From: Pseudomonadota bacterium
Lineage (GTDB): Bacteria > Pseudomonadota > Gammaproteobacteria > Burkholderiales > Burkholderiaceae_C
Reading direction: 5' to 3'
Assembly (NCBI GenBank): GCA_030538085.1
Contig: JAUNUR010000011.1
Coordinates: 1-63,947 of the forward strand
DNA length: 63,947 bases
In this document: one piece after another, positions 4,555 to 51,062 of the stretch
Numbering within the stretch: position 1 is the first letter of the stretch
Layout: every line of letters starts with the position of its first letter
Program-made: the position numbers and the translations under genes
Notes under the pieces: model-generated
Seen by the model: the letters and a program-made list of their open reading frames with translations, nothing else
Database searches by the model: none
What the model was told of the DNA's origin: nothing

Positions 4555-4788
4555 CCTAGAAACGGCGGTTGACCGCTCGCCATCCTTGGACAACTGGCAT
4601 GAGCACTGACTTTCGCAGCTTCGATCACATTCACCTGTTGGGTGAGCGCGCTATGCACCCGATCGCACCGCGCTGGCCGTGCCATGCGGCGTTGCTCGTC
4701 CTTGCAGGCACGAGCCTGTCGCGTCCTCGCGTCTTGCCTGGCACGCCCATCACGGCACGCTCGGGCGCATCCAACTGCCGTTTCTAGG
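4555..4788 (+). mobile_element. 234-bp miniature inverted-repeat element, copy 1
   Basis: The element begins CCTAGAAACGGCGGTTG and ends CAACTGCCGTTTCTAGG, giving 17-bp terminal inverted repeats with one mismatch. It is flanked by a perfect 5-bp direct repeat, TTGAA (4550-4554 and 4789-4793). Inside are a hairpin GCTCGT/ACGAGC around 4695-4716 and a 72-codon frame spanning the element (TTG 4569 to the TAG in the right end). No transposase is encoded, so it must be moved in trans. The CCTAGA ends and 5-bp duplication resemble the IS1380 family. Confidence 0.9.
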
Positions 4789-4854
4789 TTGAAGCGCAGC
4801 GAAGTCATTTGTCATTTCCGAAAAGCGGGTGCATCAGGAGAGGTCAGAGCTCCT

Positions 4855-6114
4855 TCACCCGATCAGGTCCAGCCCCAGCATGTCGGCCGCCGCATCACCC
4901 AGCGCGCCCTGCTGCTTCACCAGTTCGCCCACCAACTGGTCGGTGCCGCCCTTGATGTAGAGCGTGACCGAGCCGACCTTGGCCGCATATTCGCTGGCGA
5001 CGGCGAACGGGCGGTAGAACCCCAGCGTCAGCAGTGTGAGCAGCAGGTTCTTCAGGCGCAGCCACACGAAGGCGCCGGTACGCAGGCTGGTCTTGCTGCG
5101 CGCGATGTGGCTGAAGCCGACGTTGTTCCACACCAACTGGAACATGCGCGCCTCGCGGTAGGCGCGCGCCGGTAGGCTGGCGAGCACGAAAACCAGCAGC
5201 AGGCCCAGCATCAGCACGATCATCAGCAGGATGAAGCCGCCGATGTTGCCGCGTTCGCCCAAAATCATGGACAGCAGGGCGGTCGAGCCGCCCGTGACCA
5301 CCAGCAGCAGCCCCAGCGCTCCCACTATGCACAGCACGAAGAAAAGCGCCGTGGCCAGCCAGACCTTGACGAAATCCAGGTACACCGGCTTCCAGCGCCC
5401 CACTTGCCCGCCGATGCGCGTGCGCGCCACCAGCAGGCGGCGGTAGTTGTATTCCAGCCGGATCACGCACAGCAGCGTCAGTATCAGCGCCAGGCCCGCC
5501 AGCACCAGGGTCGATCCGCCCAGCCGCAGCCGGGGCGGTCCCATGGCGTCGGCTGGACTCCCAGCCACGCCAGCGGGCAGCTCGGGCGACAAAGCGGCGC
5601 CAAGAAAGATCAGTGCGATCCAGATGAAGGCGATGGCGAACACCGGCCAGCTGGCGACGTACACCTCTTTCCACCGCGCGGTGAAGGCCAGCCGGATACC
5701 ACGCCAGCGCGTGGCTCCCAGCCGGAAGCGCATGGCGCTGGCCCAGAGAAAAGGTGCCAGCACCGCGAAGCCGAACATCAGCAGGCTGGCCGCCAGATGC
5801 TGGCCGGTGTCCGCCGCGACCTTGTAGGCCAACCAGAATGCGCCAATGATCAGGAAGCCGAACACCATGCGCCGCACCTCGGCCACGAACTCCAGCGGGC
5901 TGCCCGCTACCTGCGTGTGGCCGTAGAAATACTGCGCCGTGCGCCGCCGTGCCCACGGCGTGTAGAGACCCAGCGTGACGATGGAGAGCAGCACGTTGAC
6001 GATCCAGACGCGGAAATATTCGCCCCCCGAGCCGGTGAACTCGATGCGATGCGCCTCGATGCCCGGCGGGTTGACAGGGTGGGAGCGCATCGTGTGCCGC
6101 GCCGCTGTGTTCAT
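4855..6114 (-). CDS. YjgN family inner-membrane protein (DUF898)
   Basis: A 419-aa multi-spanning membrane protein with internal duplication. The signature TLGLYTPWARRR near the N-terminus and TLGFYRPFAVASEY near the C-terminus are the paired motifs of the YjgN/DUF898 family, each following a hydrophobic segment. About eight membrane segments are visible. The family's function is unknown. ATG 6114 (MNTAARHTMRSHPVN) is chosen because the open frame further upstream has no hydrophobic or family-like content. It sits upstream of the M48 protease gene on the same strand; the 398-bp gap between them is filled by a transposable element inserted in a family D repeat. Confidence 0.85.
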   Translation of the reverse strand: MNTAARHTMRSHPVNPPGIEAHRIEFTGSGGEYFRVWIVNVLLSIVTLGLYTPWARRRTAQYFYGHTQVAGSPLEFVAEVRRMVFGFLIIGAFWLAYKVAADTGQHLAASLLMFGFAVLAPFLWASAMRFRLGATRWRGIRLAFTARWKEVYVASWPVFAIAFIWIALIFLGAALSPELPAGVAGSPADAMGPPRLRLGGSTLVLAGLALILTLLCVIRLEYNYRRLLVARTRIGGQVGRWKPVYLDFVKVWLATALFFVLCIVGALGLLLVVTGGSTALLSMILGERGNIGGFILLMIVLMLGLLLVFVLASLPARAYREARMFQLVWNNVGFSHIARSKTSLRTGAFVWLRLKNLLLTLLTLGFYRPFAVASEYAAKVGSVTLYIKGGTDQLVGELVKQQGALGDAAADMLGLDLIG

Positions 6115-6698
6115 GGGATGGCCCTCCGTCCTCGGCTGTGTACTTTCGGGGCAGTGTAGCGGTTGGCAGGGGTGTGCGTCGGTCCTGTCGGTGAAGTGCC
6201 AGAGCATGGCCTGCGGCGCCAGCATGGGCGGGGTGACGGTGAAGGCATCGGGCTACGGGCGCGTTCGTCATCACGCAGGTTGGGGCCACGCGGCAATAGC
6301 CGCCGTGCCAGCGTGGCGCGAAGTGGCCCCGGCAATTCATGTCACGCAAGGGCGGCTTCTGGGGGCGTCGCGCGGAAACATCAACACTGGCCGTTCACGT
6401 GCGCCTGGGCGTTGAAATCAGTCGATAGCCTTTTGGCACCATTTGTTGATATTAAATTAATAGCTTGTCGCCTTTGATAGAAAAGCGGATATGGCTTATT
6501 TGATGGTTGATAAAATTTTTTTGATCCCCCCCTGGCTTTTTCTTGCACCACGCATGGCCCGAATCATGGCGTCGCCGGGCAGCGTTATCGTAGGGGGATC
6601 GGCCAGAGAGGCTGTCCTCAAATTCATCGCGCCGCGCACGCGTCTCGGGTACCAGCGAGAAGACTTTGAACAGGCTCTCAGAACAAGGAGATGGCGTC
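6115..6698. other. Intergenic region, no gene recognised
   Basis: A 584-bp gap between divergent genes. The stretch 6420-6545 is markedly AT-rich and carries GATATTAAATTAATAGCTTG and a run of seven T residues, so promoters for one or both flanking genes could lie here, but no clear -35/-10 pair was found. An 84-codon frame at 6491-6745 has no family features and overlaps the DUF488 gene; it is not called. TTGAACAGGCTCTCAG near 6667 recurs at about 46753. Confidence 0.4.
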
Positions 6699-7106
6699 AT
6701 GAGCATCCGCATCGTTCGTCTGGGCACGGCGCGCGCCAAGGATGAGGGTCTGCGCATCGGCACCGTGCGGCGCCCGCCGCGCGGCGTGCCCAAGGCGCGC
6801 TTCGCCGCTGAGGACTGGTACGACGTGTGGTACCCCAACCTGTCGCCCAGCCCCGAGCACATGAAACTGGCGCTGTCGACCCACACCGAGCCCGACGCGG
6901 CCAAGGCGAAGAAGGACTGGGCACTCTTCACCCGACTGTTCCGCAAAGAGATGGCCGAGCCCGATGCCGCGCGCACGCTGGATGTGCTGGCGGCGCTGTC
7001 GCACCAGACCAATTTTTCGATCGGCTGCTACTGCGAGGACGAGGCGCGCTGCCACCGTTCGGTGCTGCGTGAGTTGCTGCAGGAGCGGGGCGCGGCGCTG
7101 GCCTGA
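6699..7106 (+). CDS. DUF488 domain-containing protein
   Basis: A 135-aa cytoplasmic protein. The start ATG 6699 (MSIRIVRLGT) follows a strong ribosome site, CAAGGAGA, and is preferred to the in-frame start at 6666. Family features are the N-terminal RLGTARA, the central DWYDVWYPNLSPS, and the C-terminal cysteine-rich CYCEDEARCHRSVL, which matches the YcxC.D....CHR pattern of DUF488. The biochemical role of DUF488 is not established. It stands alone, followed by a REP copy and a family D repeat. Confidence 0.85.
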   Translation: MSIRIVRLGTARAKDEGLRIGTVRRPPRGVPKARFAAEDWYDVWYPNLSPSPEHMKLALSTHTEPDAAKAKKDWALFTRLFRKEMAEPDAARTLDVLAALSHQTNFSIGCYCEDEARCHRSVLRELLQERGAALA

Positions 7107-7119
7107 GCGGGTTTCTTTT

Positions 7120-7147
7120 GTGGGGGCGGGCAAGCCCGCTCCTACAC
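7120..7147. repeat. Pseudomonas-type REP, single unit, copy 2
   Basis: A lone palindromic unit, GTGGGGGCGGGCAAGCCCGC then TCCTACAC, just after the DUF488 gene. GGGCGGGC and GCCCGCTC can pair as a hairpin. Confidence 0.65.
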
Positions 7148-7195
7148 AGAGAAGGCGGCGTCTGCACAGACGGCGGGGTGTCAAGAATGACCAAG

Positions 7196-7281
7196 GACAT
7201 GACGAATGACTTTGGTGCGCTTCACTGACAAAAGGGGCTTTGTCATTTGTCATGCGGCGTCAGCCGCGGTCATTTGTCATG
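7196..7281. repeat. Hairpin repeat family D, copy 4
   Basis: Reads GACATGACGAATGAC, then GTCATTTGTCATGCGGCG, then TCAGCCGCGGTCATTTGTCA. The GCGGC/GCCGC arms form the same hairpin as in the other copies. It lies in the gap between the DUF488 and engB genes. Confidence 0.7.
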
Positions 7282-7305
7282 GTGCAAGCATCCGCACGGC
7301 TCCTT

Positions 7306-7379
7306 GTGGGAGCGGCCTTGGCTGCGATGGCAGCGCATCGAAAGATGAGGTGTCCCATCGCAGGCAAGCCCGCTCCTAC
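7306..7379. repeat. Pseudomonas-type REP pair, copy 3
   Basis: Inverted pair beginning GTGGGAGCGGCCTTGGCTGC and ending GGCAAGCCCGCTCCTAC, with a spacer of about 35 bp. It lies 3' of engB. Confidence 0.75.
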
Positions 7380-7407
7380 GAAAAACGCAGCGCCTGGCGC
7401 TTTCTGG

Positions 7408-8115
7408 TCATGCCTCGGCGGGCGATTCGTCATCCGGCGCGGCATCTGCCACCAGCCGCCGCAGCCACAGCGCCGCGTCTTCCACGCCCTGGCGCTTGAG
7501 GGCGGAGAACAGCAACACCTGGCCGCCGCCGGCCTGCAGGCGGGTGATCTGCAGTGCCTTGGCTTGCTCGGTGCGGTTGAGCTTGTCGGCCTTGGTCAGC
7601 AGGATCAGGAAAGGCAGGCCGTCCTCGACGCGCGGGCGGATCACCTCAAGCAGCAGCTCGTCCAGCTCCTTCAGCCCATGGCGCGGGTCGGCCAGCATCA
7701 CCACGGCCGCGAGATTGCGGCGCGACACCAGGTAGTTGGCCATCACGCGCTGCCAGCGCTCCTTGTCGGCCAGCGGCACGGCGGCGTAGCCGTAGCCCGG
7801 CAGGTCGGCCAGCACGGCGTCGGTGGCGCCCTGGCGGCCCAGCGCGAACAGGTTGATGTGCTGCGTGCGCCCCGGCTTCTTGGAGGCAAAGGCCAGCTGC
7901 GTCTGCTGCGTCAGCGTGTTGATGGCGGTGGACTTGCCGGCGTTGGAGCGGCCAACGAAGGCGATTTCGGGCACCTCCAGCGGCGGGAGCTGGTGCAGTT
8001 GCGCGGCGGTGGTGAGAAAGCGCGCCGTGTGCAGCCAGCCCAGCGCCTCGCGGCCGGCGGCCGGTGCGGGGGCCGGCGCGGTGCGGGGGCGGGGGGAAGG
8101 CACGGTGGAGGACAT
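7408..8115 (-). CDS. engB: Ribosome biogenesis GTP-binding protein EngB/YihA/YsxC
   Basis: A 235-aa GTPase needed for large ribosomal subunit assembly. The G motifs are visible in order: G1 GRSNAGKST, G3 DLPGYG, G4 TKAD and G5 SALK. ATG 8115 (MSSTVPSPRPRTAP) is chosen; the proline/alanine-rich first 25 residues are longer than in many homologues, and the family core starts at about residue 30 (LHTARFLTTAAQL). It is divergent from the cytochrome c4 gene, the classical betaproteobacterial arrangement, so the 115-bp gap must hold both promoters. Confidence 0.95.
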   Translation of the reverse strand: MSSTVPSPRPRTAPAPAPAAGREALGWLHTARFLTTAAQLHQLPPLEVPEIAFVGRSNAGKSTAINTLTQQTQLAFASKKPGRTQHINLFALGRQGATDAVLADLPGYGYAAVPLADKERWQRVMANYLVSRRNLAAVVMLADPRHGLKELDELLLEVIRPRVEDGLPFLILLTKADKLNRTEQAKALQITRLQAGGGQVLLFSALKRQGVEDAALWLRRLVADAAPDDESPAEA

Positions 8116-25549: not shown

Positions 25550-26089
25550 GTGTTGATTTTGATCGGTTTACCTGGCAGCGGCAAAAGCACCGCGGGGCGC
25601 CAGTTGGCGCGGCGGTTGGGCTTGGCGTTCAAGGATGCCGATGCCGAGATTGAGAGCCGGGCAGGCATGTCGGTGCGGGAGTATTTCAGTGCCCATGGTG
25701 AAGCCGCGTTCAGGGATCTGGAAGAGCAAATTCTGGATGAGTTGACCCAGACCCAGACCGAGTCTGCGGTGATCATCGCCACTGGGGGTGGAGCGGTACT
25801 GCGGCCTGTCAATCGTCAGCGCCTGCGGGAGCGCGGCACGGTGATTTATCTGAGAGCATCGGCGGAGCAATTGGCCAAGCGCTTGCGGCACGATACCAAG
25901 CGTCCATTGCTGCAAGTCGCTGATCCGTTGAAGCGTCTGCGCGCCCTGTACGAAGAGCGTGATCCGCTGTACCGTGAATGCGCCCACTACGTGGTCGATA
26001 CACACGGCTCGTCGCTGCCGATGCTGGTCAACCGTGTCGTGATGCAACTCGATTTGCTGCCACCACACGCGGTGCGGACGGGTGCATAG
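25550..26089 (+). CDS. aroK: Shikimate kinase (C-terminus ends in transposable-element sequence)
   Basis: A 179-aa kinase that phosphorylates shikimate in the pathway to aromatic amino acids. The Walker A loop is GLPGSGKST (residues 6-14), with D in DADAEIE and the shikimate-binding GGGAVL. Start GTG 25550 is adopted because homologues begin a few residues before the P-loop. The end is unusual: the last codons, GGT GCA TAG, and hence the stop, match the interior of the 234-bp mobile element whose truncated copy follows at 26079-26184. The ancestral C-terminus was probably slightly different. Confidence 0.92.
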   Translation: MLILIGLPGSGKSTAGRQLARRLGLAFKDADAEIESRAGMSVREYFSAHGEAAFRDLEEQILDELTQTQTESAVIIATGGGAVLRPVNRQRLRERGTVIYLRASAEQLAKRLRHDTKRPLLQVADPLKRLRALYEERDPLYRECAHYVVDTHGSSLPMLVNRVVMQLDLLPPHAVRTGA

Positions 26090-26184
26090 CGCGCTCACCT
26101 AACAGGTGATGTGATCGAAGCTGTGAAAGTCAGTGCTCATGCCGGTTGCCCAAGGATGGCGAGCGGTCAACTGCCGTTTCTATT
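26079..26184 (-). mobile_element. Miniature inverted-repeat element, truncated copy
   Basis: Only the left part of the 234-bp element is present, in inverse orientation. On the minus strand it begins TAGAAACGGCAGTTGACC and runs about 105 bp to GCTATGCACCCG, ending inside aroK. The outer CCTAG is altered to CAATAG, and no target duplication is visible, so this is an old, degraded copy. Confidence 0.85.
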
Positions 26185-26194
26185 GAGAGTTTCG

Positions 26195-26395
26195 TCATTC
26201 AGGACAAGCATACGTAAGGCCTTCACCTCATACCGTCATTGCGGCGAAGGCCGCAATCCACACGGTGTCCGCAGGTCAACACCGTGTCAAGGTGACGCCC
26301 CATGGATTGCGGCCTTCGCCGCAATGACGAGGGGATGTGAGGGAGTTTTTCTGATGGCCCGCGCTGTCGTGATTTTTGAAAATATCAATAGGTTT
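26195..26395. repeat. Composite inverted repeat, family B1, copy 1
   Basis: Two palindromic units, GTCATTGCGGCGAAGGCC (from 26239) and the segment ending GCCTTCGCCGCAATGACG (about 26310-26328), flank CACGGTGTCCGCAGGTCAAC and CACCGTGTCAAGGTGACGCC. The outer flanks, AGGACAAGCATACGTAAGGC on the left and GATGGCCCGCGCTGTCGTG plus TTTTTGAAAATATCAATAGG on the right, recur at 63755-63947 in inverse orientation. Confidence 0.8.
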
Positions 26396-26458
26396 AACGA
26401 AAACCTCGGCACGGCGCGAGGTGTCGGGCGCGGTGTTTCAGGCTCTACACTGGCGGCC

Positions 26459-27568
26459 ATGCAGGTATCTTCATGTTCTGAACGGGTAGAGATTGCGCTG
26501 GGTGAGCGCAGCTACGGCATCGCCATTGGATCGGGGCTGCTGGATGATCCGGCCTCGTTCGAGGCCGCGCGCGGTGGCACTCATGCGCTGATCGTCACCA
26601 ACACCACCGTTGCGCCGCTGTACGCCGCGCGCCTGACCGCGGTGCTGGCGCCACGCCATGCCACGGTGAAGACCCTAGCGCTGCCCGATGGCGAGCAATA
26701 CAAGACCTGGGAGTCGCTCAACCTGATCTTCGACGCCCTGCTGGGCGACGGCGCCGACCGCAAGACCACGCTGTACGCGCTGGGCGGTGGCGTGGTGGGC
26801 GACATGACGGGTTTTGCCGCCGCCTGCTACATGCGCGGCGTGCCGTTCGTGCAGGTGCCGACCACGCTGCTGGCGCAGGTCGATTCGTCGGTGGGTGGCA
26901 AGACAGCCATCAACCACCCGCTGGGCAAGAACATGATCGGCGCCTTCTATCAGCCGCTGGCGGTGGTGTGCGATCTGGATGTGCTCAAAACGCTGCCGCC
27001 GCGCGAGTTGTCGGCGGGCCTGGCCGAGGTGATCAAGTACGGGCCGATCGCCGACATGGCGTTTCTCGACTGGATCGAGGCGAACATCGACGCCCTGCGT
27101 GCCTGCGAACCCGGGGCACTGGCGCACGCCGTCAAGCGCAGTTGCCAGATCAAGGCCGACGTGGTGGGCCAGGACGAGCGCGAGTCGGGCCTGCGCGCCA
27201 TCCTCAACTTCGGCCACACCTTTGGCCACGCCATCGAGGCCGGCATGGGCTATGGCGCCTGGCTGCACGGCGAGGCGGTGGGCGCGGGCATGGTGATGGC
27301 GGCCGAGCTGTCGCGCGAGCTGGGGCTGGTGGATGCCGCCTTCGTGCAGCGCCTCACCCAGTTGATCCAGCGCGCCGGGCTGCCCACGCGCGGCGCGGTG
27401 ATCGACGCGCAGGACAACGCTGGCCGCTACCTGCAATTGATGCGCGTCGACAAAAAAGCTGAAGGCGGCGAGATCCGTTTCGTGATCATCGACGGCCCCG
27501 GTCGCGCGGCCGTGCGCGCGGCGCCGGATGCGTTGGTGCGGCAGGTGATCGACCGCTGCTGTGCTTGA
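26459..27568 (+). CDS. aroB: 3-dehydroquinate synthase
   Basis: A 369-aa cytoplasmic NAD- and metal-dependent enzyme that closes the ring in the second step of the shikimate pathway. Motifs are [20 protein letters not shown] (NAD binding), [18 protein letters not shown] and the metal ligands in [10 protein letters not shown] with the later HGEAV. ATG 26459 ([14 protein letters not shown]) is chosen; the frame remains open to 26111 through the B1 repeat and the mobile-element remnant, which is not coding. The gene usually follows aroK directly; here 369 bp of repeats separate them. Confidence 0.95.
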
Positions 27569-33065: not shown

Positions 33066-33387
33066 CCTGGAAACGGCAGTTGACCGCTCGCCATCCTTGG
33101 GCAACCGGCATGAGCACTGACTTTCACGGCTTCGATCACGTCCACCGGTTGGGTGAGCGTGCTATGCACCCGATCGCACCGCGCTGGCTTGCTGCCCAAG
33201 CGGCGTTGCTCGTCCTTGCAGGCACGAGCCTGCCGCGTCCTCCCCCTTGCAGGGCGCGCATCGGTCAGAGCCCGATGCCGCTCGTGCCGTCCAAAGCTGC
33301 GCAGGCAGCTTTGGAGCCGCGGCACTTGCCCTTTGCCTGCCACGCCCATCACGGCACGCTCGGGCGCATCCAACTGCCGTTTCTAGG
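33066..33387 (+). mobile_element. Miniature inverted-repeat element, expanded copy (322 bp)
   Basis: The ends are CCTGGAAACGGCAGTTG and CAACTGCCGTTTCTAGG. The interior matches the 234-bp element except for about 88 extra bases near 33241-33330, which contain two small hairpins (CATCGG/CCGATG and AAGCTGC/GCAGCTT). The flanking pentamers, CTGAC and CTCAG, are not identical, suggesting an older insertion than copies 1 and 4. Confidence 0.85.
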
Positions 33388-39140: not shown

Positions 39141-39734
39141 TCAGGGGCATGTAGTCGAGCTGTCATTGAAGCTCACTGTTCGCCCCGTGGTGCTGACACA
39201 CACTTTGCGTGCAACGGTATTGGTTGCGGATGAGGTAATGGTGTAGTCCAGCCCATTGCCGCCAGGATTCATCAGTCCGTTGGGGAAAAAAGTTCGCGCG
39301 CCCGCAAGGCTGGCAGTCATGGCGGCAAGTCCTGGCAAGGCGGGTTGGATGCGGATTGCATCTTCGTTCTCATCCCTGACGCCGTCGTTGTTGTTGTCAA
39401 AAAATACCATCCAGCCATTTGCCCAATCGTTGGCACTGGCATCGCCACAGGCTCCGTTGCCGTCCAAAGGGCAGATGCTTACGGCGCGTGAGCGCTTCAT
39501 CGCTTCGGCGCGCGCCATGCGCATATCGCCACCAATGGCCGTAGCAGCCGTGCTGACCCGCCAATCCGCAATCAAGCGAACAAACGAAGGCGTGGCCAGA
39601 CTCAACAAGATGGCGAGAATGGATATTACCGTTAGCAGTTCGACCATGGTCAAGCCGCGAGCGCGACCTAACCCATGGATACAGCGACGAGGCAAAGCAA
39701 TGATGGGTGAGTCAGACATGGATGACCTCGTCAT
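39141..39734 (-). CDS. fimT: Type IV minor pilin FimT/FimU (GspH-type), copy 1
   Basis: A 197-aa prepilin. The site RARG precedes LTMVELLTVISILAILLSLA. The GspH/FimT domain follows with PSFVRLIADWRVSTAATAIGG and a C-terminal RKVCVSTTGRTV. ATG 39734 overlaps the pilY1 stop (ATGA), coupling the two; ATG 39719 is also possible. A paralogue at 44100-44708 shares the RLIADWxVS motif. FimT and FimU cannot be told apart by eye. Confidence 0.85.
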   Translation of the reverse strand: MTRSSMSDSPIIALPRRCIHGLGRARGLTMVELLTVISILAILLSLATPSFVRLIADWRVSTAATAIGGDMRMARAEAMKRSRAVSICPLDGNGACGDASANDWANGWMVFFDNNNDGVRDENEDAIRIQPALPGLAAMTASLAGARTFFPNGLMNPGGNGLDYTITSSATNTVARKVCVSTTGRTVSFNDSSTTCP

Positions 39735-42700
39735 ACCGCAGGAGGAGTCAAAATCTGGCGCCAACTGCGGTTCCAGCCTTGTAGAGGGCAAACAACGGTA
39801 AGATCAAACCCGCCCGAAGTGCCTACCGCCTTGCCGTCCGTGTCGATACAGTTACCCATTTTCTGTGTGGGATCGAACACCGGTGAGTTGGGTTCACCCA
39901 TGCTGGCAATACTGTCTTTTTGATTCTTTGCGCTGACGTCGATCAACTGATTGCCGCGTGCAAAACCACCGATTCCGATAAACCCTACGGAATAAGGTAC
40001 CACTTTTCCGGCAGTGGTCTTGAAGGCCGCAACCTCCCCACCATTTTTTGCTTGCAGTACATAAACCAGGCTGGGCGAACTGGAGGCTTCACATGATTCC
40101 AGAGCGTCGTTTTGTGGTTGTATAACCGTTGAGAACAAGACGACCGATCGGCCCAGATTGAACACGTCTGCAATAAAACGCTCGCCCCGCTCGGCGCCAG
40201 GTACGGCACCGACCATCAACCGCCAGCCCAAATGCTCGCTTTGATAATTAATGCTGTTATTAGAGCGTTTGTACATATTATCTAGCAGCGGAACCTCACG
40301 GGAGGAGTTTTGGCTAGCAACATCAATGGTTTGTACCAGCCACGTCTGACCGATAGGCCGATGAATACCCGTTTGCTCGGCGTTGACCGGCGTTGGATCC
40401 CAATAGCCATAAATGGCTTGCTTGACATCGGCAGCGGCATCAGTCATGTCAGTCTCATCGAGAGCCATGCCTGTGCCCACGACCACCATTACTCCACATT
40501 GACCGTCGAGCAGGCTTGTATTGCAATTGCCCTTGTCGCTTCTGCCGCCAGCGGCGGGCTGTAGAGCGGGTGCGCCATAAATAGGCCGATTGTTTTCCGT
40601 AGTGAACAGCAAGTGTGCTTCCCACTTGGCACCCAGGCTGAAGCGCCATACGTTACCTTTTGCGTCTCCGGCATAAGCCGCGACGATTCTCTGGTTGCCA
40701 TCTCGCAGCACGGTGATACCGCTCAAGCCGCGTCCAACGTCTACGCTTTCAGTTGTCGCAATGAAACCCAGCTCGGCGCCTGTGAGAGCATCAAGCACAT
40801 ACAAACCAGCTTTACCTAGAGAGGTGTAATGACCGCTGTTACTCAGCACAGCCCATTGATTAGCTGATTTTTCGGAATTTTCGGACAGTTGTCCAGAACG
40901 GGTCAGGTTGGTGACATGACCCAAGTCAGACCAGCCACGTTCCCATAGAAAATGTTCTTTGGTCGGTATGCGGTTTTTGACCTCATTCTCACCGCTTCCT
41001 TTGAAAGGTGCATCCAGTGCATAAAGAAAGCGCCCCTTATCTTGTGCGTCCGCCAGTGCGCGCCCGGATGAACCGACGATCAACTGACGCCACTTGGTGC
41101 CGTCATGCACATCATGGTCATACAGAGGGCCATCCAGAACATATTCAAAACTGTAGTCTCTGTTGGCCAGCTTGTGCAGCTTGCCGCCAACGCCCAGGGG
41201 TACAAATGCAGCTACCTCCGCGCCAGCCTTAACGTTGGGAAGAATGGTTTCTCCGGTCTGAGTGTCGGTAACCTTGGCGGCGTTGAGAACATGCACCATG
41301 CCGTCGTTGTTGGCGCTATAGAGCGTGGGGGGGTAGCTGGTTTTGTCTGTTCTGTAGGTATCATAAATATCTTTGCCGCCCACGGTGCTGCTATTCACGG
41401 TATAGCCCATGTTTCTGAGGCTCCAGGTGAGCAGTGGCGGCGAGTTGACCGACGCACCAATCAAACTGGGCCGCCTGCGCAGAACATCACCGCTGGCGCT
41501 TTTGACCGTGTCGTCGCCCAGCAGGTACTTGACTACCTGGGAGCCGTCGGAGGAGGAAAAGAAATTGGTCGGATCCAACTCGCTTCGCACGGCGGCAGGA
41601 GGGCTGGCTACGGTGGTGCCGCCTTCGTGCAAAGCCACGCCCGCTCCGTTATGGAAAGTGTAGAGCTTGCGCGATGTCGCGCCCTGAGCCGCCAATGCCC
41701 GGCGCGCCGACCAGACAGGGCTAGCGGCCGACGGATTGGCCATGATGTTGTACGCACGCACATCACCAGTGTTGTCAGACGTTTTGTATTCTGTCAGGTA
41801 GCGCAAGGCGTCCGTGGAGGCATCACTGTCCATCGACGAGCCACTGGCCGCCACGCCGGCGTCAGTGCCCGTGGCGTTGAGAATGCCGTAAATGATCCGG
41901 GAGAAAAGCTCTTTCAGCTCTTGCGAGTTCTTGACGCCGGCACCAAACCCGCCGCCGGTGTAGCCAGCATGAATAAAGTCATCCACACGGCTTTGATCGC
42001 TGGCCCAAGAGGAATTGAGTGCGGGGTTATTGCTCGTGTACCAAGCAGGCGGATTGCTGATAGAGCCGGTTCGATAATACTCTTTTTGATAACGCTCAAT
42101 GTCCGCCATGCGCAGGCCGTCTGAGCGATAAGCAGCAGCCGTGCTAGGGAGATCCCCCGTGGGAAGAATGCCAAATCCCACCGTGTAAGTCGTCATGTTT
42201 TGGCGATTAACTGGATTGCTGGGTTCCAGATCATCCACCGATTGACGCAGGCGAAGAGGAATATTGTTATCAGTGTCGGGTCTGAAGTCGGTGTGCCAAT
42301 AATAGCGTGCGGTCAAGTCGGCCAAACCGGTTGTTGCCGGCGATGGGTAGGGCGTATAAAGTGATCTATCACTATCCCCACGTGGGTTATAGCGAAATGT
42401 ACGGGACACGGCCTTGCCATCGGCATCTGTATAATTGATGTTGTATGAGCTCGATGCGGTATTGTCTTGATCTGTTGAATAGTTCGAAGTGCCCGCGTTC
42501 CATGCGCCATCAGAGAAAAGAATATTGAACGAGCGTCGGCATGAAAGTTCCGGGTTTGTTTTTGCATCATGCGGGAGTGTCGGGTTTGTCAGCCAGGGTG
42601 AGGGTGAGCGGCTATTCCCGTAATAGCTTGCAACTTTGTCTATTGCATTATGGAGCGGTGTGCCCCCGGTAGGAATTTCAGTGTAAAAGGCATCATAAAT

Positions 42701-43612
42701 TGCCTGTTTACGATCTGCCACAACACTTGCTTTGTTGCTGAAAACACGTACTCCACGTGTTAGGCCTTCAGATGTTGGGTTGATCCAGCCATACCCCATG
42801 CGGAATCGGTCATCATAATCTGGATTGCTCAAGGCTGCGCCAATGGCCGTGGTGGCCGCACGCATGCGTGTGGAATGGTGAGCGTACCAGATGGAAATAT
42901 TTTTCCATTCTTCGGCTGTGGTGCACACATTGCCTGCGCAGTCTGAACGCCCAGGGTGTTTGGTATATGTGGTCGAGGCATTCCACACCACCTTGTGCTC
43001 GGTATAGGCGGTACATGCGGGCGTGGTGCATAGCCATGAACTGAATACGGCATCGGATCGGTTGATGCGATGGTAAGGGGAGTTGCCGCTGTTGGCCACA
43101 GTATTTCTGTTGTCGACTGAATAGACGCCCGTTCCATTTTCTAACATGGGGTAGTTTCGATTATCTGCCCTGGCTGTGCGATCACTGTTGACCCGCATTT
43201 CGTAACGCACCCGAGGATCGTAATATAAATCCAGGACATCGGGTGAGCGTTGGGCAAGACCGGAATTGCTTGTGAACGACGGGGTATAAAGGCTATTGCC
43301 ACCGCGGCAGTAAAACCTGGAATAGGATTGGCCGCTGGTTGTACTGCCGCCCAGGTAGATATACGGCTCCCGACCTGATGAGCAGCTAGAAATAACCCGT
43401 GAAAAATCCGGATCGACCACAAAGTTCCAGTCCATGGAGCCGGAGTTGTCGATGACCAGCACCAGATTGGGTTTGGCGCCGACCACGGTTGTGAGCAGGG
43501 GCTCCTGCGCCGGTTGGCTGGCAGCATGGGCAGGGCCATTCGCAATCAATAGCACTATGCTGCTGGTGGCCAGGGTAGCCAAGTTAAACCGGTGTGAAAG
43601 AAGTTTTTTCAT
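39731..43612 (-). CDS. pilY1: PilY1 family type IV pilus tip-associated protein
   Basis: A 1293-aa secreted protein that with the minor pilins caps the pilus and acts in adhesion and surface sensing. The signal peptide ends near AHAAS (residue 30). A von Willebrand A domain has its MIDAS DNSGS at residues 55-59. An RGDS tetrapeptide is at 411-414. The C-terminal beta-propeller region shows the PilY1 repeats SANNDGMVHVLNA and YAGDAKGNVWRFSLG; the short calcium-loop sequence known from Pseudomonas PilY1 was not found. ATG 43612 (MKKLLSHRFN) is the start, before a clear signal peptide. The gene comes before fimT-pilVWX, an uncommon order. Confidence 0.92.
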   Translation of the reverse strand: MKKLLSHRFNLATLATSSIVLLIANGPAHAASQPAQEPLLTTVVGAKPNLVLVIDNSGSMDWNFVVDPDFSRVISSCSSGREPYIYLGGSTTSGQSYSRFYCRGGNSLYTPSFTSNSGLAQRSPDVLDLYYDPRVRYEMRVNSDRTARADNRNYPMLENGTGVYSVDNRNTVANSGNSPYHRINRSDAVFSSWLCTTPACTAYTEHKVVWNASTTYTKHPGRSDCAGNVCTTAEEWKNISIWYAHHSTRMRAATTAIGAALSNPDYDDRFRMGYGWINPTSEGLTRGVRVFSNKASVVADRKQAIYDAFYTEIPTGGTPLHNAIDKVASYYGNSRSPSPWLTNPTLPHDAKTNPELSCRRSFNILFSDGAWNAGTSNYSTDQDNTASSSYNINYTDADGKAVSRTFRYNPRGDSDRSLYTPYPSPATTGLADLTARYYWHTDFRPDTDNNIPLRLRQSVDDLEPSNPVNRQNMTTYTVGFGILPTGDLPSTAAAYRSDGLRMADIERYQKEYYRTGSISNPPAWYTSNNPALNSSWASDQSRVDDFIHAGYTGGGFGAGVKNSQELKELFSRIIYGILNATGTDAGVAASGSSMDSDASTDALRYLTEYKTSDNTGDVRAYNIMANPSAASPVWSARRALAAQGATSRKLYTFHNGAGVALHEGGTTVASPPAAVRSELDPTNFFSSSDGSQVVKYLLGDDTVKSASGDVLRRRPSLIGASVNSPPLLTWSLRNMGYTVNSSTVGGKDIYDTYRTDKTSYPPTLYSANNDGMVHVLNAAKVTDTQTGETILPNVKAGAEVAAFVPLGVGGKLHKLANRDYSFEYVLDGPLYDHDVHDGTKWRQLIVGSSGRALADAQDKGRFLYALDAPFKGSGENEVKNRIPTKEHFLWERGWSDLGHVTNLTRSGQLSENSEKSANQWAVLSNSGHYTSLGKAGLYVLDALTGAELGFIATTESVDVGRGLSGITVLRDGNQRIVAAYAGDAKGNVWRFSLGAKWEAHLLFTTENNRPIYGAPALQPAAGGRSDKGNCNTSLLDGQCGVMVVVGTGMALDETDMTDAAADVKQAIYGYWDPTPVNAEQTGIHRPIGQTWLVQTIDVASQNSSREVPLLDNMYKRSNNSINYQSEHLGWRLMVGAVPGAERGERFIADVFNLGRSVVLFSTVIQPQNDALESCEASSSPSLVYVLQAKNGGEVAAFKTTAGKVVPYSVGFIGIGGFARGNQLIDVSAKNQKDSIASMGEPNSPVFDPTQKMGNCIDTDGKAVGTSGGFDLTVVCPLQGWNRSWRQILTPPAV

Positions 43613-43850
43613 TTTGACCTCGGACTCAAGAGAGGAGCGCAGGGTAAGCGCGGCTGCCTTGCAACCAGGGTAAACGCCCTGCCGCGAACTTACTTGTTGG
43701 CTGATCATCGCTGCCAAACGCGGCCTGCATGCAAGCATTGCGACGAACGGCTTTTTTGTCGTGACAAGCGGCCCCGCGTGCCGTTGCCTCCCGTCAGTGG
43801 GCATTGGGTACGGTTTTTCAGGGCGGTGTGTACGAATGTGGTGCTTTTAA

Positions 43851-44084
43851 CCTAGAAACGGCAGTTGACCGCTTGCCATCCTTGGGCAACCGGCATGAGC
43901 ACTGACTTTCACGGCTTCGATCACGTTCACCTGTTGGGTGAGCGCGCTATGCATCCGATCGCACCGCGCTGGACGTGCCATGCGGCGTTGCTCGTCCTTG
44001 CAGGCACGAGCCTGCCGCGTCCTCACGCCTTGCCTGACACGCCCATCACGGCACGCTCGGGCGCATCCAATTGCCGTTTCTAGG
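43851..44084 (+). mobile_element. 234-bp miniature inverted-repeat element, copy 3
   Basis: The ends are CCTAGAAACGGCAGTTG and CAATTGCCGTTTCTAGG. The flanking pentamers are TTTAA and TTTAG, a duplication with one change. It lies between fimT copy 2 and pilY1, ending 15 bp from the fimT stop codon, and separates them within what would otherwise be one operon. Confidence 0.9.
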
Positions 44085-47159: not shown

Positions 47160-47172
47160 GGGGCATTCAAAT

Positions 47173-47363: not shown

Positions 47364-47750
47364 TTATTGCGTCTGCGTACCGTCGGCGGCGGAGTTGGCA
47401 GCCGCGGCCTCGCGTTCGCGGCGCTCCTGCCGTTCGGCGCGGCGGCGCTCGGCCGTGGTGCGGATTTCCTGTTCCGTCAAATAGCCGTCGCCGTTCAGGT
47501 CGGTGTTTCGGAATTGATCGGCCACGCGGGGGCTGAGGCGGAAGGCAATCTTGGCTTCGGCGCGCGAGATGCGGCCATCCTTGTTGGTGTCCAGCAGCTT
47601 GAACCACTTCAGCGCCTGTTGTTCGCCCTTGCTGGCTTTTGCCGGAGTCGATGCGGGGGTGGCTGGTGGTTCAGGCTGTTGCGCCAGTGCGGGCAGCGCG
47701 CAGGTCAGGGCCAGAAAGGTGGTGTTCAAAAGCAGGCGGGCAGCGTTCAT
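47364..47750 (-). CDS. EF-hand domain protein, secreted
   Basis: A 128-aa protein with a signal peptide ending ALAQQ (residue about 24). Two calcium-binding EF-hand loops follow: DTNKDGRISRAE and DLNGDGYLTEQE. After them is a charged ERRRAERQERRERE helix. Such small EF-hand proteins are common in Burkholderiales; their role is not known, but periplasmic calcium binding is likely. The ATG overlaps the stop of the 5'-nucleotidase gene (ATGA), so the two are translated together. Confidence 0.88.
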   Translation of the reverse strand: MNAARLLLNTTFLALTCALPALAQQPEPPATPASTPAKASKGEQQALKWFKLLDTNKDGRISRAEAKIAFRLSPRVADQFRNTDLNGDGYLTEQEIRTTAERRRAERQERREREAAAANSAADGTQTQ

Positions 47751-48694
47751 GCGGGGTTGGAGTCCGGTGAGCGCTTGGGGGTTTCAGTCCGCACTGTCAA
47801 ATTTGTAACGCCTGCCGCCACATGACCGGCCGGCACGTGGCGCGCGGCGTGCTCGATGTGGCCCGTCTGGTCGTCGAAGAAGAAGTCGGGTTCGAACTCG
47901 CGCAGGAACTCGCCCTTGGGCAAGCCGCCCAGGAACATGGCTTCGTCCACGCTCACGCCCCAGTGGCGCAGTGTCTGGATGGGGCGGTCGGCCGTGGCGG
48001 CGCCGCGTGCTGTGACCAGCGCGGTGCGGATGCGCATGGCATCGCCGCCCGCCTGCTGCAGGCGATGGAGCGCTGTCAGGAACGGGTGGAACGGGCCTGG
48101 CGCCAGCGGCTGTTCGGCCTTGGCGATTTCGTGCGATTCGAAGGCGCTCAGACCATCGGCCTGGTAGATGCGCTCGGCCTCGTCGGAAAACAGCACCGCA
48201 TCGCCGTCGAAGGCGATGCGCACCTCATGCGGGTGCGCATCGCTGGCGCGCACCGCTTGCGTCGCCACCTGCGCCGCCGGGTAGCCCAGCTCCAGCGCCC
48301 GCGCCACGTCGTCACCATTGGCCGAGAGAAACAAGTGTGCTCCCAGGGGCCGCAGGTAGTGGAATGGATCGCGTCCCTGCGTGAACACACCGCGCTCGAT
48401 CTGGTGCAGCCCATGGGACTTGGCCGAGCGCAGCACGCGCAGACCGCTTGCCGGATCGTTGCGAGAAAGAATGACCACTTCCACGCTCCGCTGCGACTGG
48501 CTATTGAAAGCCAGGAATTTCTTGACCAGCGAGAACGCCACGCCCGGCTTGGCCGGCACGTCGATGCGGTCGAATTGCAGCCGCATGTAGGCGGCGGGGT
48601 CACCCGCCTCGAACAGCTGGTTTTCCTCCTCGAAGTCGAACAGCGCGCGCGAGGAGATGGCGACGACGAGCTGGTTGTGCAAGGTGGTGGCCAT
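47747..48694 (-). CDS. 5'-nucleotidase (cytosolic I type)
   Basis: A 315-aa protein of the 5'-nucleotidase family related to eukaryotic cN-I: LVVAISSRALFDFEEENQ at the start carries the nucleophile-region DFEEE, and VVILSRNDPASGLRV, RIAFDGDAVLFSDEAE and EFEPDFFFDDQTGHIE are characteristic of the haloacid-dehalogenase-like fold. It should dephosphorylate nucleoside monophosphates. It is coupled to the EF-hand gene downstream and separated from gspF upstream by a family E repeat. Confidence 0.88.
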   Translation of the reverse strand: MATTLHNQLVVAISSRALFDFEEENQLFEAGDPAAYMRLQFDRIDVPAKPGVAFSLVKKFLAFNSQSQRSVEVVILSRNDPASGLRVLRSAKSHGLHQIERGVFTQGRDPFHYLRPLGAHLFLSANGDDVARALELGYPAAQVATQAVRASDAHPHEVRIAFDGDAVLFSDEAERIYQADGLSAFESHEIAKAEQPLAPGPFHPFLTALHRLQQAGGDAMRIRTALVTARGAATADRPIQTLRHWGVSVDEAMFLGGLPKGEFLREFEPDFFFDDQTGHIEHAARHVPAGHVAAGVTNLTVRTETPKRSPDSNPA

Positions 48695-48718
48695 GGTGGA
48701 GGTCAGTGCGCGGATGCC

Positions 48719-48832
48719 GGAGGGACCGATGGCCGCGGAGCAGGCCAGACCTGGACGCCGTGCGCGGGGTGCCCCCGCGCACCAGCGTTGTCCCCCTGGG
48801 GGGAAGGCGCCGAAGGCGACTCAGGGGGGATC
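48719..48832. repeat. Comamonadaceae-type repeat family E, copy 1 (inverted)
   Basis: On the minus strand it reads CCCCCCTGAGTCGCC, then GGGGGACAACGCTGG, then a GC-rich hairpin, then GCCTGCTCCGCGGCCATCGG. The copy at 57218-57330 has the same order. It fills the gap between gspF and the nucleotidase gene. Confidence 0.75.
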
Positions 48833-50054
48833 ATTTGACCCACTGGTTCAACTGGATGATGGGCAGCATCACCGCCAGCACGATCAGCATCACGATCACG
48901 CCCATGGCGACGATGAGCAGCGGCTCCAGCACGGTGGCCAGTTGCATGGCACGGCGCTGCACCTCGGCGCTGAGCTGGCCCGCGGCGCGCTGCAGCATCA
49001 CCGGCAACTGGCCGGTCTGCTCGCCCAGGCGCGCGAACATGGCCAGCAGGCCGGGAAAGCGTTTTTTCTGCGCCAGCGCGCTGGCCAGCGGCGCGCCTTC
49101 GCGCACCATCACCAGCGCGTCTTCGGCGTCGGCGCGCATGGCGGTGTTGTTCAGCGTCTCGGCAGCGGCCTGCAGCGCGCGCAGGATGGGCACGCCGGCC
49201 CCCGCCAGCATGGCCAGGGTGCTGCCAAAGCGCGCCGCGTTGTAGCCGCGCGCCAGCCGGCCGACCAGCGGCAGGCGCAGCCACAGGGCATCGAATTTCA
49301 AGCGCAATTCGGGCCTTTTCAGCGCCATGTGAGTGCCAATGGTTATCAAAACAATAGCGCCCAGCAGCCACCAGCCATAGTGGCGCACAAAGCTGCTCAG
49401 GCCCAGCATGACCACGGTGAGCCAGGGCAGGCTGCGTTGCGAGCCGGCGAACACCGTCGCTACCTGCGGCACCACGTAGCTGACCAGGAACACCACGATG
49501 ACGATGGACAGCAGGGTGACGATGGCCGGGTACAGCGCCGCGCCGATCAGCTTGGCCTTCAGCGCCTGGCGCTCTTCCAGATCGTCGGCCAGGCGCTCCA
49601 GCACCGTGCCCAGGTGTCCGCCTTGTTCGCCAGCGGCGATGACGGCGGTGTACACCGGGCTGAATTCGCGCGGTGTCTGCGTCATGGCCTTGGCCAGCGG
49701 CGAGCCGGCGTTGACCTCGGCGCGCAGGCCGGCGATCAGGTTGCGCTGGCGCTCGTCCTCGGCCTCGTCGGCCAGCGCGGTAAGGGATCGCTCCAGCGGC
49801 AGGCCACTACCGACCAGGCCGGCCAGCTGGCGCGTCCAGATCGCCAACTGCGTGCTGTTGAAGGCGCGCGCGCCGCCAATGGGCCGCGATAACGCTGACC
49901 CGCCGCTGGTGCCGCCGGTGACCGGCTCCACTGCCAGCGGCACCAGCGCTTGCCCGCGCAGCAGGGCGCGCGCGGCCTTTACGGTATCGGCCTCGATCAC
50001 GCCCTTGCGGGATTTGCCGTCGGCTTGCAGGGCTTCAAAGGTGTAGGCAGGCAC
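48831..50054 (-). CDS. gspF: Type II secretion inner-membrane protein GspF
   Basis: A 407-aa platform protein of the type II secretion machine with two T2SF domains and three membrane segments (around ALYPAIVTLLSIVIVVFLVSYVV, HYGWWLLGAIVLITIG and LLIVAMGVIVMLIVLAVMLP). Family motifs are RQLAGLVGSGLPLERSL and YPAIVTLLS. GTG 50054 (VPAYTFEALQADGKSRKG) is the inferred start, since homologues begin right here and have about 405 residues; ATG 50129 would add 25 unrelated residues. No other gsp genes are adjacent, which is common in Burkholderiales. PilC of type IV pili is a relative but differs in its N-terminus. Confidence 0.88.
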   Translation of the reverse strand: MPAYTFEALQADGKSRKGVIEADTVKAARALLRGQALVPLAVEPVTGGTSGGSALSRPIGGARAFNSTQLAIWTRQLAGLVGSGLPLERSLTALADEAEDERQRNLIAGLRAEVNAGSPLAKAMTQTPREFSPVYTAVIAAGEQGGHLGTVLERLADDLEERQALKAKLIGAALYPAIVTLLSIVIVVFLVSYVVPQVATVFAGSQRSLPWLTVVMLGLSSFVRHYGWWLLGAIVLITIGTHMALKRPELRLKFDALWLRLPLVGRLARGYNAARFGSTLAMLAGAGVPILRALQAAAETLNNTAMRADAEDALVMVREGAPLASALAQKKRFPGLLAMFARLGEQTGQLPVMLQRAAGQLSAEVQRRAMQLATVLEPLLIVAMGVIVMLIVLAVMLPIIQLNQWVK

Positions 50055-50168
50055 GAAAAGCGAAACAAGTGGGCGCCATGGCGGCGCGAAGCCGTCAATG
50101 GTAGCGGCTGGCTGGAAGGGGCGCGCCACGGGCGCCGGTTGAAGGCGCCCTCTGGAGATTCCTGCGAT

Positions 50169-50453
50169 CTATTCGCAGCGGAAGGTCAGCATGCTCTCGG
50201 CCTGCGGCGCCAAGCTGCCGGGCGGGCTTTCCTTCAGGTCCGTCTGTTGAAAGCGCTGGCCTCGTGCCCCGCAATGTGCCGTGGCTTCCTGCTCGGCGGC
50301 GCGCGTCAGCGACTGGGGCTGGCTGGCTACCAGGCCGCGCTTGCTGATGGTCCACGTACCGTCGAAGCCCGCCACGGGGCCAGTGCTGGTGGCGCAGCCG
50401 GTCATGGCGGCGGCGAAGATCACGGGGGCAAGGGCGGGCATGAAGCGGCGCAT
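50169..50453 (-). CDS. Small lipoprotein of unknown function
   Basis: A 94-aa protein starting at ATG 50453, with GGAGA upstream at 10 bp. The signal peptide ends in the lipobox MTGC. The mature part contains WTISKRGLVASQPQSLTRAAEQEATAHCGARGQ and ends with a lone cysteine in LTFRCE, so a disulfide with C in AHC is possible. Similar Burkholderiales lipoproteins with a W.I..RG and A..A..YC pattern exist; no function is assigned. Confidence 0.7.
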   Translation of the reverse strand: MRRFMPALAPVIFAAAMTGCATSTGPVAGFDGTWTISKRGLVASQPQSLTRAAEQEATAHCGARGQRFQQTDLKESPPGSLAPQAESMLTFRCE

Positions 50454-50828
50454 GACGAAATCTCCAGCAAATGAATCCGAATATCCGCACGATAGCGCTG
50501 GGGTGGTGCGCGCCATGCCGGTGGCGGCCTACAAGCCGGGCGGCAAAAATGCGCGGTACGGCGTCGGTCGATGGCGCGTGCCTTGCAACGGAGGACAGCG
50601 TCTCAACAAGGTACGTCTTCCCAGGGGCAAGCAAGGAGCGCACATGACCACCTGTCCACTGATCTGGTCTGGCCTGGTCTGGAAAAGGATGGCTCTGAGC
50701 AGTCGATGAGGCGGTTGCCAGGCGTTACACCGCTTACGCGGCAGCCATCCACGCGATCTCCATGCGGACTTTTGAAAATGCCTTATTCCTCCTGAAAAAT
50801 CGCTAGCGAGCGCATGCAAGCCAATGAT
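50454..50828. other. Intergenic region upstream of the small lipoprotein gene
   Basis: A 375-bp stretch with no gene recognised. Open frames on both strands here have no family-like content. The tail from 50780 is a little AT-richer. GGCTCTGAGC near 50690 resembles the reverse of the short GGCTCTCAG motif near 46758. Confidence 0.35.
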
Positions 50829-51062
50829 CCTAGAAACGGCAGTTGACCGCTCACCATCCTTGGACAATTGGCATGAGCACTGACTTTCACAGCTTCGATC
50901 ACATTCACCTGTTGAGTGAGCGCGCTATGCACCTGATCGCACCGCGCTGGCCGTGCCATGCGGCGTTGCTCGTCCTCGCAGGCACGAGCCTGCCGCGTCC
51001 TCGCGTCTTGCCTGACACGCCCATCACGGCACGCTCGGGCGCATCCAACTACCGCTTCTAGG
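50829..51062 (+). mobile_element. 234-bp miniature inverted-repeat element, copy 4
   Basis: The ends are CCTAGAAACGGCAGTTG and CAACTACCGCTTCTAGG. It is flanked by a perfect 5-bp direct repeat, ATGAT (50824-50828 and 51063-51067). The right-hand duplication contains the start codon of the downstream gene at 51063. Confidence 0.92.

What the first reader, a model, noticed from the sequence alone, without database searches (positions are those of the whole stretch)
4555..51062. A 234-bp miniature transposable element family with IS1380-like ends and 5-bp target duplications
Three copies are exactly 234 bp (4555-4788, 43851-44084, 50829-51062), one is 322 bp (33066-33387) and one is truncated (26079-26184). 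All share the outer sequence CCTAGAAACGGCAGTTG or close variants, repeated inverted at the other end. Two copies have perfect 5-bp direct repeats at their borders (TTGAA; ATGAT), and a third has one with a single change (TTTAA/TTTAG). There is no transposase gene inside. In established knowledge, IS1380-family elements such as ISEcp1 begin with CCTAGA and make 5-bp duplications, so trans-mobilisation by a relative is inferred. I know of no description of this element.
Basis: partly seen in the sequence, partly recalled or inferred. Interest (0 to 1): 0.75.

Follow-up and report, generated by a model that had tools for sequence, protein, structure and literature searches.

The report
Miniature transposon with conserved folded core
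A 234-base mobile DNA element, present about a hundred times in this Comamonadaceae genome, has the ends of a known transposon family (IS1380) but carries inside it a folded nucleic-acid structure, absent from the RNA family library searched, that evolution has preserved in many bacteria and that also turns up in miniature elements with different ends.

Summary
The whole draft genome has 222 matches to the 17-bp end at up to 3 mismatches, against 12 for a control. Of 103 distinct copies from several genomes, 59 have perfect 5-bp duplications, all NTNAN; empty sites were found. The IS1380 reading is right: of 80 related IS1380-subgroup loci, 65 have CCT-type ends about 1.6-1.8 kb apart, and the 32 with perfect 5-bp duplications are all NTNAN. 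None was found in this genome, so mobilisation in trans is inferred.

The unexpected part is the interior. In 60 copies it keeps one secondary structure: 72 pairs, 40 with changes on both sides, 96% of cells paired, with tandem G.A motifs. Wobble pairs are kept mainly on the minus strand. A model of this core matches 55 of 369 genomes of the class, including miniature elements with other ends. No Rfam match reached threshold in the loci tested. I read it as a MITE, a new variant, with a conserved RNA or single-stranded-DNA core of unknown function. A Polaromonas JS666 MITE that I could not read might be the same element.

The parts
4550..4554 (.). target duplication, left copy, TTGAA
   Evidence: other copies of the host repeat align across the junction with one TTGAA removed
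4555..4788 (+). MITE copy 1, 234 bp, 17-bp terminal inverted repeats at 4555-4571 and 4772-4788
4653..4770 (-). conserved long hairpin of copy 1 (structured strand is minus)
   Evidence: 127.8 bits (this sequence was used in building the model)
4789..4793 (.). target duplication, right copy, TTGAA
26079..26184 (-). truncated copy, one end kept (26168-26184), beside shikimate kinase (25550-26089) and 3-dehydroquinate synthase (26111-27568) frames
33066..33387 (+). 322-bp copy with about 88 extra internal bases; flanks CTGAC/CTCAG
   Evidence: core found as two partial or weak model matches on minus, 33194-33255 and 33275-33369
43851..44084 (+). MITE copy 3, 234 bp, flanks TTTAA/TTTAG; terminal repeats 43851-43867 and 44068-44084
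43949..44066 (-). conserved long hairpin of copy 3 with tandem G.A motifs
   Evidence: 128.0 bits (used in building the model)
50829..51062 (+). MITE copy 4, 234 bp, ATGAT/ATGAT
50927..51044 (-). conserved long hairpin of copy 4
   Evidence: 124.8 bits, E 1.8e-26 (not among the sequences the model was built from)

Best explanation
This is a non-autonomous miniature transposable element (MITE). Shown: 17-bp inverted ends CCTAGAAACNGCAGTTG, insertion at NTNAN targets with 5-bp duplication, about 100 copies, no coding signal, and autonomous IS1380-family elements elsewhere with like ends and the same target rule. Inferred: an IS1380-type DDE transposase of that subgroup (about 510-545 aa) binds the ends in trans and moves the element; the enzyme came from an element since lost from this genome, lying in an assembly gap, or arriving on plasmids. 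Shown: much of the interior keeps one secondary structure across genera, a long imperfect hairpin with tandem G.A motifs plus a small hairpin, closed by the paired ends, with wobble pairs tolerated mainly on the minus strand. Inferred: the minus strand acts as a single strand, most likely as RNA, that binds a host protein or is processed, and the core is a portable module that has been combined with several kinds of transposon ends because it helps such elements persist or spread.
For: Copy number and ends. Duplications: 59 of 103 copies perfect and 22 with one mismatch, against 6.6% perfect when flanks are re-paired at random; 59 of 59 perfect ones are NTNAN against a 3.4% background in the window. 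Nested copy with TTCAA/TTCAT. Empty sites: 19 further places in the genome align as single stretches across the joined junction of the 4555 copy, and 8 of 8 orthologous loci examined in other genomes of the genus give no hit to the element. Partner: 65 of 80 IS1380-subgroup loci have CCT-type inverted ends 1.55-1.8 kb apart; of these 32 have perfect 5-bp duplications, all NTNAN, 6 have one mismatch and 5 lack a flank; Comamonadaceae copies of 1657 bp have ends with 2 and 3 mismatches. Structure: 72 pairs, 96.2% of cells paired, 40 pairs and 391 cells with changes on both sides against 22.8 and 119 in shuffles, 0 of 500 as high; slid controls 27.5-39.7% paired. Distant set of 33 matches: 94.2% paired, 418 cells against 127. 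Tandem G.A: 54-56 of 60 at each of four positions. Strand bias: 32 pairs against 12, p 0.004, with the same counts when the structure is derived on the other strand. Folds beat shuffles, minus z -7.8, plus -5.7. No coding signal: N/S 2.42 in the open frame, 2.11-2.87 over the other five.
Against: No IS1380 transposase found in this genome. No autonomous element with exactly this genome's ends was seen; where a partner and the MITE share a genome (G014, G086) their ends differ at about 3-5 of 17 positions. Of 18 family genomes with a partner match, partial ones included, 6 have the ends at up to 1 mismatch, and so do 32 of 281 without (Fisher p 0.017): a weak association, so most MITE-bearing genomes show no partner. 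No expression data. No orientation bias to flanking genes (8 same, 7 opposite). The strand bias is not corrected for shared ancestry and is absent in the small hairpins (4 pairs against 4). In the distant set the outer tandem G.A step holds in only 16 of 33 (the inner in 29 of 33). Pairing of the two ends is expected from transposase recognition alone.
Confidence: 0.75

Rival explanations
1. An ordinary MITE in which the interior is passive; the palindromic arms stay complementary by template switching or quasi-palindrome correction during replication, not by selection on a functional fold.
For: Such correction produces paired changes without function (recalled). Bursts of copying mean many copies share ancestry.
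Against: Correction should erase mismatches, yet the tandem G.A positions persist in 54-56 of 60 copies and the inner step in 29 of 33 distant matches (outer step 16 of 33), while stem letters change widely. Wobble pairs are kept mainly on one strand.
Confidence: 0.15
2. The interior acts as single-stranded DNA: a hairpin formed during replication or transfer helps bring the two ends together for transposition.
For: The paired ends close the structure; G.T pairs and tandem G.A pairs also form in DNA (recalled); the plus strand folded as DNA beats shuffles (z -4.0).
Against: DDE transposases act on double-stranded ends (recalled); the same core occurs with other terminal repeats, so it is not tied to one transposase.
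Confidence: 0.2
3. The element encodes a small protein: the plus strand has an open frame from a common ATG to the TAG in the right end.
For: 34 of 60 copies have the ATG and a frame ending in the terminal repeat; the commonest lengths differ by multiples of three.
Against: The N/S ratio in that frame (2.42) lies inside the range of the other five frames (2.11-2.87); 18 of 60 copies stop early or run past the stop and 8 more lack the ATG.
Confidence: 0.03
4. A REP/REPIN-type palindromic repeat spread by a RAYT tyrosine transposase.
For: Intergenic, palindromic, high copy number.
Against: REPs are 20-40 bp palindromes with GTAG or CGTC tags (PMC3733652, search-listing abstract and passages); this element has 17-bp inverted ends, 5-bp NTNAN duplications and IS1380-type relatives. 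RAYT genes were not searched for.
Confidence: 0.02

Closest known systems
IS1380 family, a subgroup of 1.6-1.75 kb elements with transposases of about 510-545 aa (PF13701; NF033539 at 141-183 bits for three members, cut-off 180)
   Same: ends like CCTAAAAACNGCAGTT[GA] and 5-bp NTNAN duplications
   Different: the MITE lacks the gene; a search of 92 loci, most with these elements, found the core only outside the transposase elements
ISEcp1 (IS1380 family)
   Different: ISEcp1 is autonomous and moves adjacent genes; its target TATGA does not fit NTNAN
Folding MITEs: Correia/NEMIS, ERIC, QMITE of Coxiella, TIMEs
   Same: short, inverted ends, duplications, transcripts predicted to fold; Correia and some ERIC transcripts are cut by RNases (PMC10969869 passages; PMC4133298 passages; PMC5896051 passages and section 10)
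   Different: none of the passages read describes paired compensatory changes across genera or one core shared by elements with unrelated ends; the full papers were not read
MITE of Polaromonas sp. JS666 (Mattes 2008, reference 33 of PMC10969869)
   Same: same bacterial family; may be the same element
   Different: paper not held; not compared
BRE, Beta-proteobacterial repeat element, about 90 bp (PMC3110155, abstract, passages and section 14)
   Same: repeat in Comamonadaceae and Bordetella; one copy is transcribed as a small RNA
   Different: partly in tandem arrays; no inverted ends or duplications described in what I read; its sequence is not in the text held, so identity with the core or with the second repeat seen here is untested

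Membership tests
MITE | short (under about 500 bp), multicopy, no transposase gene | tested here: met
   234 bp, at least 40 full copies and 222 ends; no coding signal
MITE | terminal inverted repeats | tested here: met
   17 bp; 98.9% of cells paired in helix 1 (18 pairs) of 60 copies
MITE | target-site duplication and empty sites | tested here: met
   59 of 103 perfect 5-bp, 22 one mismatch; uninterrupted host repeats and 8 of 8 empty orthologous loci for one copy
MITE | mobilised by a related autonomous element | tested here: inconclusive
   like ends and the same targets in other genomes; none found in this genome; no mobility test
IS1380-derived ends | autonomous IS1380-family element with the same ends | tested here: met
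   65 of 80 loci have CCT-type ends; the 17 elements, picked for near-matching ends, differ at 1-3 of 17 positions per end; no exact match at both ends
IS1380-derived ends | same duplication length and target | tested here: met
   32 perfect 5-bp duplications among 65 elements with ends, 32 of 32 NTNAN
IS1380 family itself | encodes a DDE transposase of the family | tested here: not met
   no such gene inside; the element is not an IS
known Rfam RNA family | match at or above gathering score | tested here: not met
   window at gathering threshold: only RNase P and a tRNA; no match at E up to 1 in 7 loci; 2 sub-threshold matches in 10 distant loci, MIR904 over the core of L380 at 33.1 of 80 bits (E 0.0007) and KDPG-aldolase at 25.3 of 54.6
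functional structured RNA | covariation beyond shuffles and slid controls | tested here: met
functional structured RNA | transcribed | not testable with these tools
   no expression data
REP/REPIN | 20-40 bp palindrome with GTAG or CGTC tag | tested here: not met
   anatomy differs
REP/REPIN | RAYT gene association | not tested
   no RAYT search was run

The most novel reading that the evidence does not exclude
The core is a portable structured-RNA domain, not in the Rfam release searched, that several unrelated non-autonomous transposons of Pseudomonadota (IS1380-type ends, AGGGCCTGTTAACA-type ends, ACCCAAAGCGTTTGAG-type ends and others) have each acquired: a mobile RNA that rides on different transposases and is selected for its own fold, perhaps by binding a widely conserved host factor through its tandem G.A internal loops.
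Probability: 0.4. Interest if true: 0.85.

Novelty: new variant of a known kind. Interest (0 to 1): 0.62.

Why it matters
MITEs are often treated as passive leftovers of insertion sequences. Here the interior is conserved as a fold across genera and occurs with different transposon ends, which no parent element seen here explains. That makes a testable question of what keeps such elements in genomes: the fold itself may be what is selected. The covariance model also offers a way to look for what may be a large class of related repeats in Gammaproteobacteria.

Tried and rejected
Rejected: coding function; Rfam membership; parent IS1380 in the own draft genome; core inside the IS1380 elements (4 matches in 92 sources at E up to 0.1, none within the transposase element; L098 and L204 are one place; L135 is a separate MITE on a contig that also has a transposase fragment). 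IS1380 elements of a high-scoring type (L091-L093, L109, L117) have other ends (CTAGCCCGGATATTTCA) and are not the partner.

Led nowhere: MITE search of phages, no match; 12 viral contigs with one exact 17-bp end each, none paired within 3.5 kb and none with the core; orthologous-site search with the 43851 copy, where MITE hits filled the capped list. Literature by sequence strings: none for the ends or for the alternative ends and more core strings; 11 papers with core strings, all with unrelated titles (listing only). Searches for MITE with IS1380, Comamonadaceae, Polaromonas, structured RNA or covariation listed no title on this element, but most subscription papers are not held.

Rows left out: of 60 fetched stretches, L245, L264 and L270 (cut or off-length) and L233 (near-identical to L232) were left out of A3 and A4; the window's 50829 and 33066 copies were not in them either. 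A5 used 49 of the 60 rows. A6 holds 33 matches from 28 loci, among them second matches in one element and the antisense match of L293. L310, L314 and L320 were left out; L310 and L314 were not inspected at the right place, L320 proved to lie in an AGGGCCTGTT element. L399 was left out. One search examined 43 of the loci (42 of the 80 plus L201); one search repeated the count on all 80. In one search, 4 of 38 copies lacked a called gene on one side. In one search, 5 of 68 loci gave no inverted repeat, and the script did not always pick the outermost repeat; assignment there is by eye. The 299 genomes are taken to be one draw; the listed handles agree, the full lists were not compared.
Full report
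CHECK. The 17-bp end CCTAGAAACGGCAGTTG has 9 matches in the window at up to 3 mismatches; dinucleotide shuffles give a mean of 0.07 and none of 100 reaches 9. In the whole draft genome (G000, 3.5 Mb, 134 contigs) the 43851 copy finds 40 full-length matches at 92-100% identity, itself included (capped, so a lower bound). The end occurs 113 + 109 times at up to 3 mismatches against 7 + 5 for the reversed pattern, or 90 + 79 against 0 at up to 1 mismatch. Several contigs end inside a copy, as expected of a repeat that breaks assembly.

DUPLICATIONS AND TARGET. Of 103 distinct full copies with both flanks, from this and other genomes, 59 have identical 5-bp flanks and 22 differ at one base; random re-pairing of the same flanks gives 6.6% identical. 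In this genome alone it is 23 and 8 of 38. All 59 perfect duplications are NTNAN (TTGAA, TTCAA, ATGAT and so on), a pattern found at 3.4% of window positions. One copy sits inside an older copy, which resumes after TTCAA/TTCAT. The 4555 copy sits inside another repeat of about 85 bp: with its flanks joined and one TTGAA removed, 19 further places in the genome align across the junction as single stretches (only 18 of 453 candidates were scored there). At the orthologous locus in eight other genomes of the genus both flanking regions are present and the element gives no hit (8 of 8 loci examined).

DISTRIBUTION. A full-element search finds it in 21 of 60 genomes, this one included. The end at up to 1 mismatch is in 38 of 299 genomes of the family, 27 of 141 genera, with 108 + 104 ends in one of them. 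Two plasmids of 72,556 carry a copy at 80% and 77% identity, Polaromonas sp. P1-6 and Caballeronia grimmiae, which fits spread between genera.

PARENT. The curated IS1380 model finds nothing in this genome. In 43 genomes picked as element-bearing it finds matches in 18. One high-scoring type (L091-L093, L109, L117) has different ends, but a subgroup has ends like CCTAAAAACCGCAGTTA (L099, L111; L098 by protein). These proteins, 510-542 aa, score 183, 141 and 157 bits against a cut-off of 180 and match Pfam DDE_Tnp_1_4. A search with their alignment confirmed 403 relatives in a capped list and kept 80 loci, from several phyla by their titles. Of these 80, 65 have CCT-type inverted ends 1.55-1.8 kb apart; 32 of them have perfect 5-bp duplications, 32 of 32 NTNAN, and 6 more have one mismatch (first seen on 43 loci). 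In Comamonadaceae genome G149 two intact 1657-bp copies have duplications TTCAG and ATCAA, a third intact copy has unequal flanks, and a degraded copy has TTCAT; their ends are 2 and 3 mismatches from the MITE end. So the ends and the target rule are those of this IS1380 subgroup. Against a simple story: within the genus only G014 of 29 genomes has a strong transposase match, its ends are not identical to its MITE ends, and across 299 family genomes 6 of 18 with a transposase match (some partial) also have the MITE ends, against 32 of 281 without (Fisher p 0.017). Most genomes with the MITE thus show no partner now.

THE CORE. Aligning 60 copies from 30 genomes and two plasmids (plus strand, minus strand) showed that changes come in pairs. 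For the minus-strand alignment, a structure of 72 pairs is formed in 96.2% of cells; 40 pairs and 391 cells have changes on both sides, against 22.8 and 119 in shuffles (0 of 500 reach either); sliding one side drops pairing to 27.5-39.7%. The structure was derived from the same alignment, which favours it on percentage paired. A plus-strand structure also exceeds its controls, with fewer paired changes (35 pairs, 310 cells). The terminal helix is expected anyway from a transposase that reads both ends, so the evidence for a functional fold is the inner hairpin: 16 of 22 pairs of helix 2, 6 of 12 of helix 3 and 5 of 6 of helix 5 change on both sides. Single-sequence folds beat shuffles on both strands, more on minus (z -7.8 against -5.7). 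Among pairs that are mostly Watson-Crick, G-U on minus exceeds A-C in 32 and the reverse in 12 (p 0.004); the structure derived on plus gives the same counts; the bias is in the long hairpin (21 against 6) and not in the small hairpins (4 against 4). This is not corrected for ancestry. Two tandem G.A/A.G steps flank one covarying pair in 54-56 of 60 copies.

BEYOND THE ELEMENT. A covariance model of the inner hairpin (R1) matched 55 of 369 genomes of the class at E up to 0.001 (44 of 272 genera) and 23 of 398 of the phylum at E up to 1e-5. E-values from this model are rough, and no reversed-genome control was run, so the weak matches are unproved. Reading distant loci, many have CCTA ends with NTNAN duplications, but others hold the core inside quite different inverted ends: AGGGCCTGTT followed by AACACTA, CACACTA or the like, about 265 bp (12 loci with both ends); GGCGTGTCGTCAT with CTAG at both borders (L358, L359, L362, L363); ACCCAAAGCGTTTGAG (L301, L315); CATGGTGGGATTTTCC (L307 only). 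The second may be a form of the first, and the last two rest on one or two loci. In 33 aligned matches 94.2% of cells pair and 418 cells have changes on both sides against 127 in shuffles (that alignment is fitted to the model, which favours it). The stem letters vary widely, while GGCAAGGCG and GCAACGC around the loops persist; the inner tandem G.A step holds in 29 of 33 and the outer in 16 of 33. The core was not found within the IS1380 elements (92 sources).

WHAT IT DOES. No promoter or expression test was made. In this genome 34 of 38 copies could be placed between called genes: 15 between convergent genes, 4 divergent, 15 co-directional (8 with the structured strand as the genes, 7 opposite), none inside a called gene (gene calls by a simple codon model). 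Convergent spaces are 7 of 37 in the window (Fisher p 0.04), so copies seem to gather where they harm least, and there is no sign of a role as a leader or tail of mRNAs. An open frame on plus shows no coding signal. I think it most likely that the minus strand acts as RNA; single-stranded DNA is the main rival.

KNOWN OR NEW. Folding MITEs are known (PMC10969869, PMC4133298, PMC5896051; passages and one section read), and 5-bp duplication by IS1380-family ISEcp1 is documented (PMC2887853, passages). I found no paper with the end strings or with the later core strings; one search listed only unrelated titles. Two leads could not be closed: a MITE in Polaromonas JS666 (reference in PMC10969869; paper not held) and the 90-bp BRE of Betaproteobacteria, one copy of which is transcribed (PMC3110155, abstract, passages and section 14), whose sequence is not in the text. 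I therefore call it a new variant of a known kind and not categorically new.

Noticed in passing
window 4495-4554 with 4794-4820, 52599-52681, 3145-3228, 7195-7279: A second dispersed repeat of about 85 bp (TGACCAATGACC...AATGACAAATGG...GTCATTGAAGCGCAGCGAAGTCATTTGTCATT) with at least 19 further places in the genome and copies in other genomes of the genus; the 4555 MITE has jumped into one copy.
   Followed up: partly
window 33066-33387; L032, L051; L084 (another genus): A long subfamily of 319-322 bp with about 88 extra internal bases that include an inverted repeat, recurrent in this genome and in G276.
   Followed up: partly
L312, L313, L316, L318, L320, L321, L351-L353, L368, L369, L378: Elements of about 265 bp with AGGGCCTGTT ends that carry the core; L311, L312, L313 and L318 have a second core match in opposite orientation. 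Their transposase was not sought.
   Followed up: partly
L130 977-1111: A lone core-like hairpin (27.7 bits) with no inverted ends seen beside it, on a contig with an IS1380-type element.
   Followed up: no
window 1785-2103: Bacterial RNase P RNA gene, class A.
   Followed up: no
window 39731-43804: Frame of 1357 aa with a PilY1 domain and a low score in the codon model compared with other called genes, possibly acquired.
   Followed up: no
window 51475-51546: tRNA gene on minus, about 410 bp from the 50829-51062 copy.
   Followed up: no
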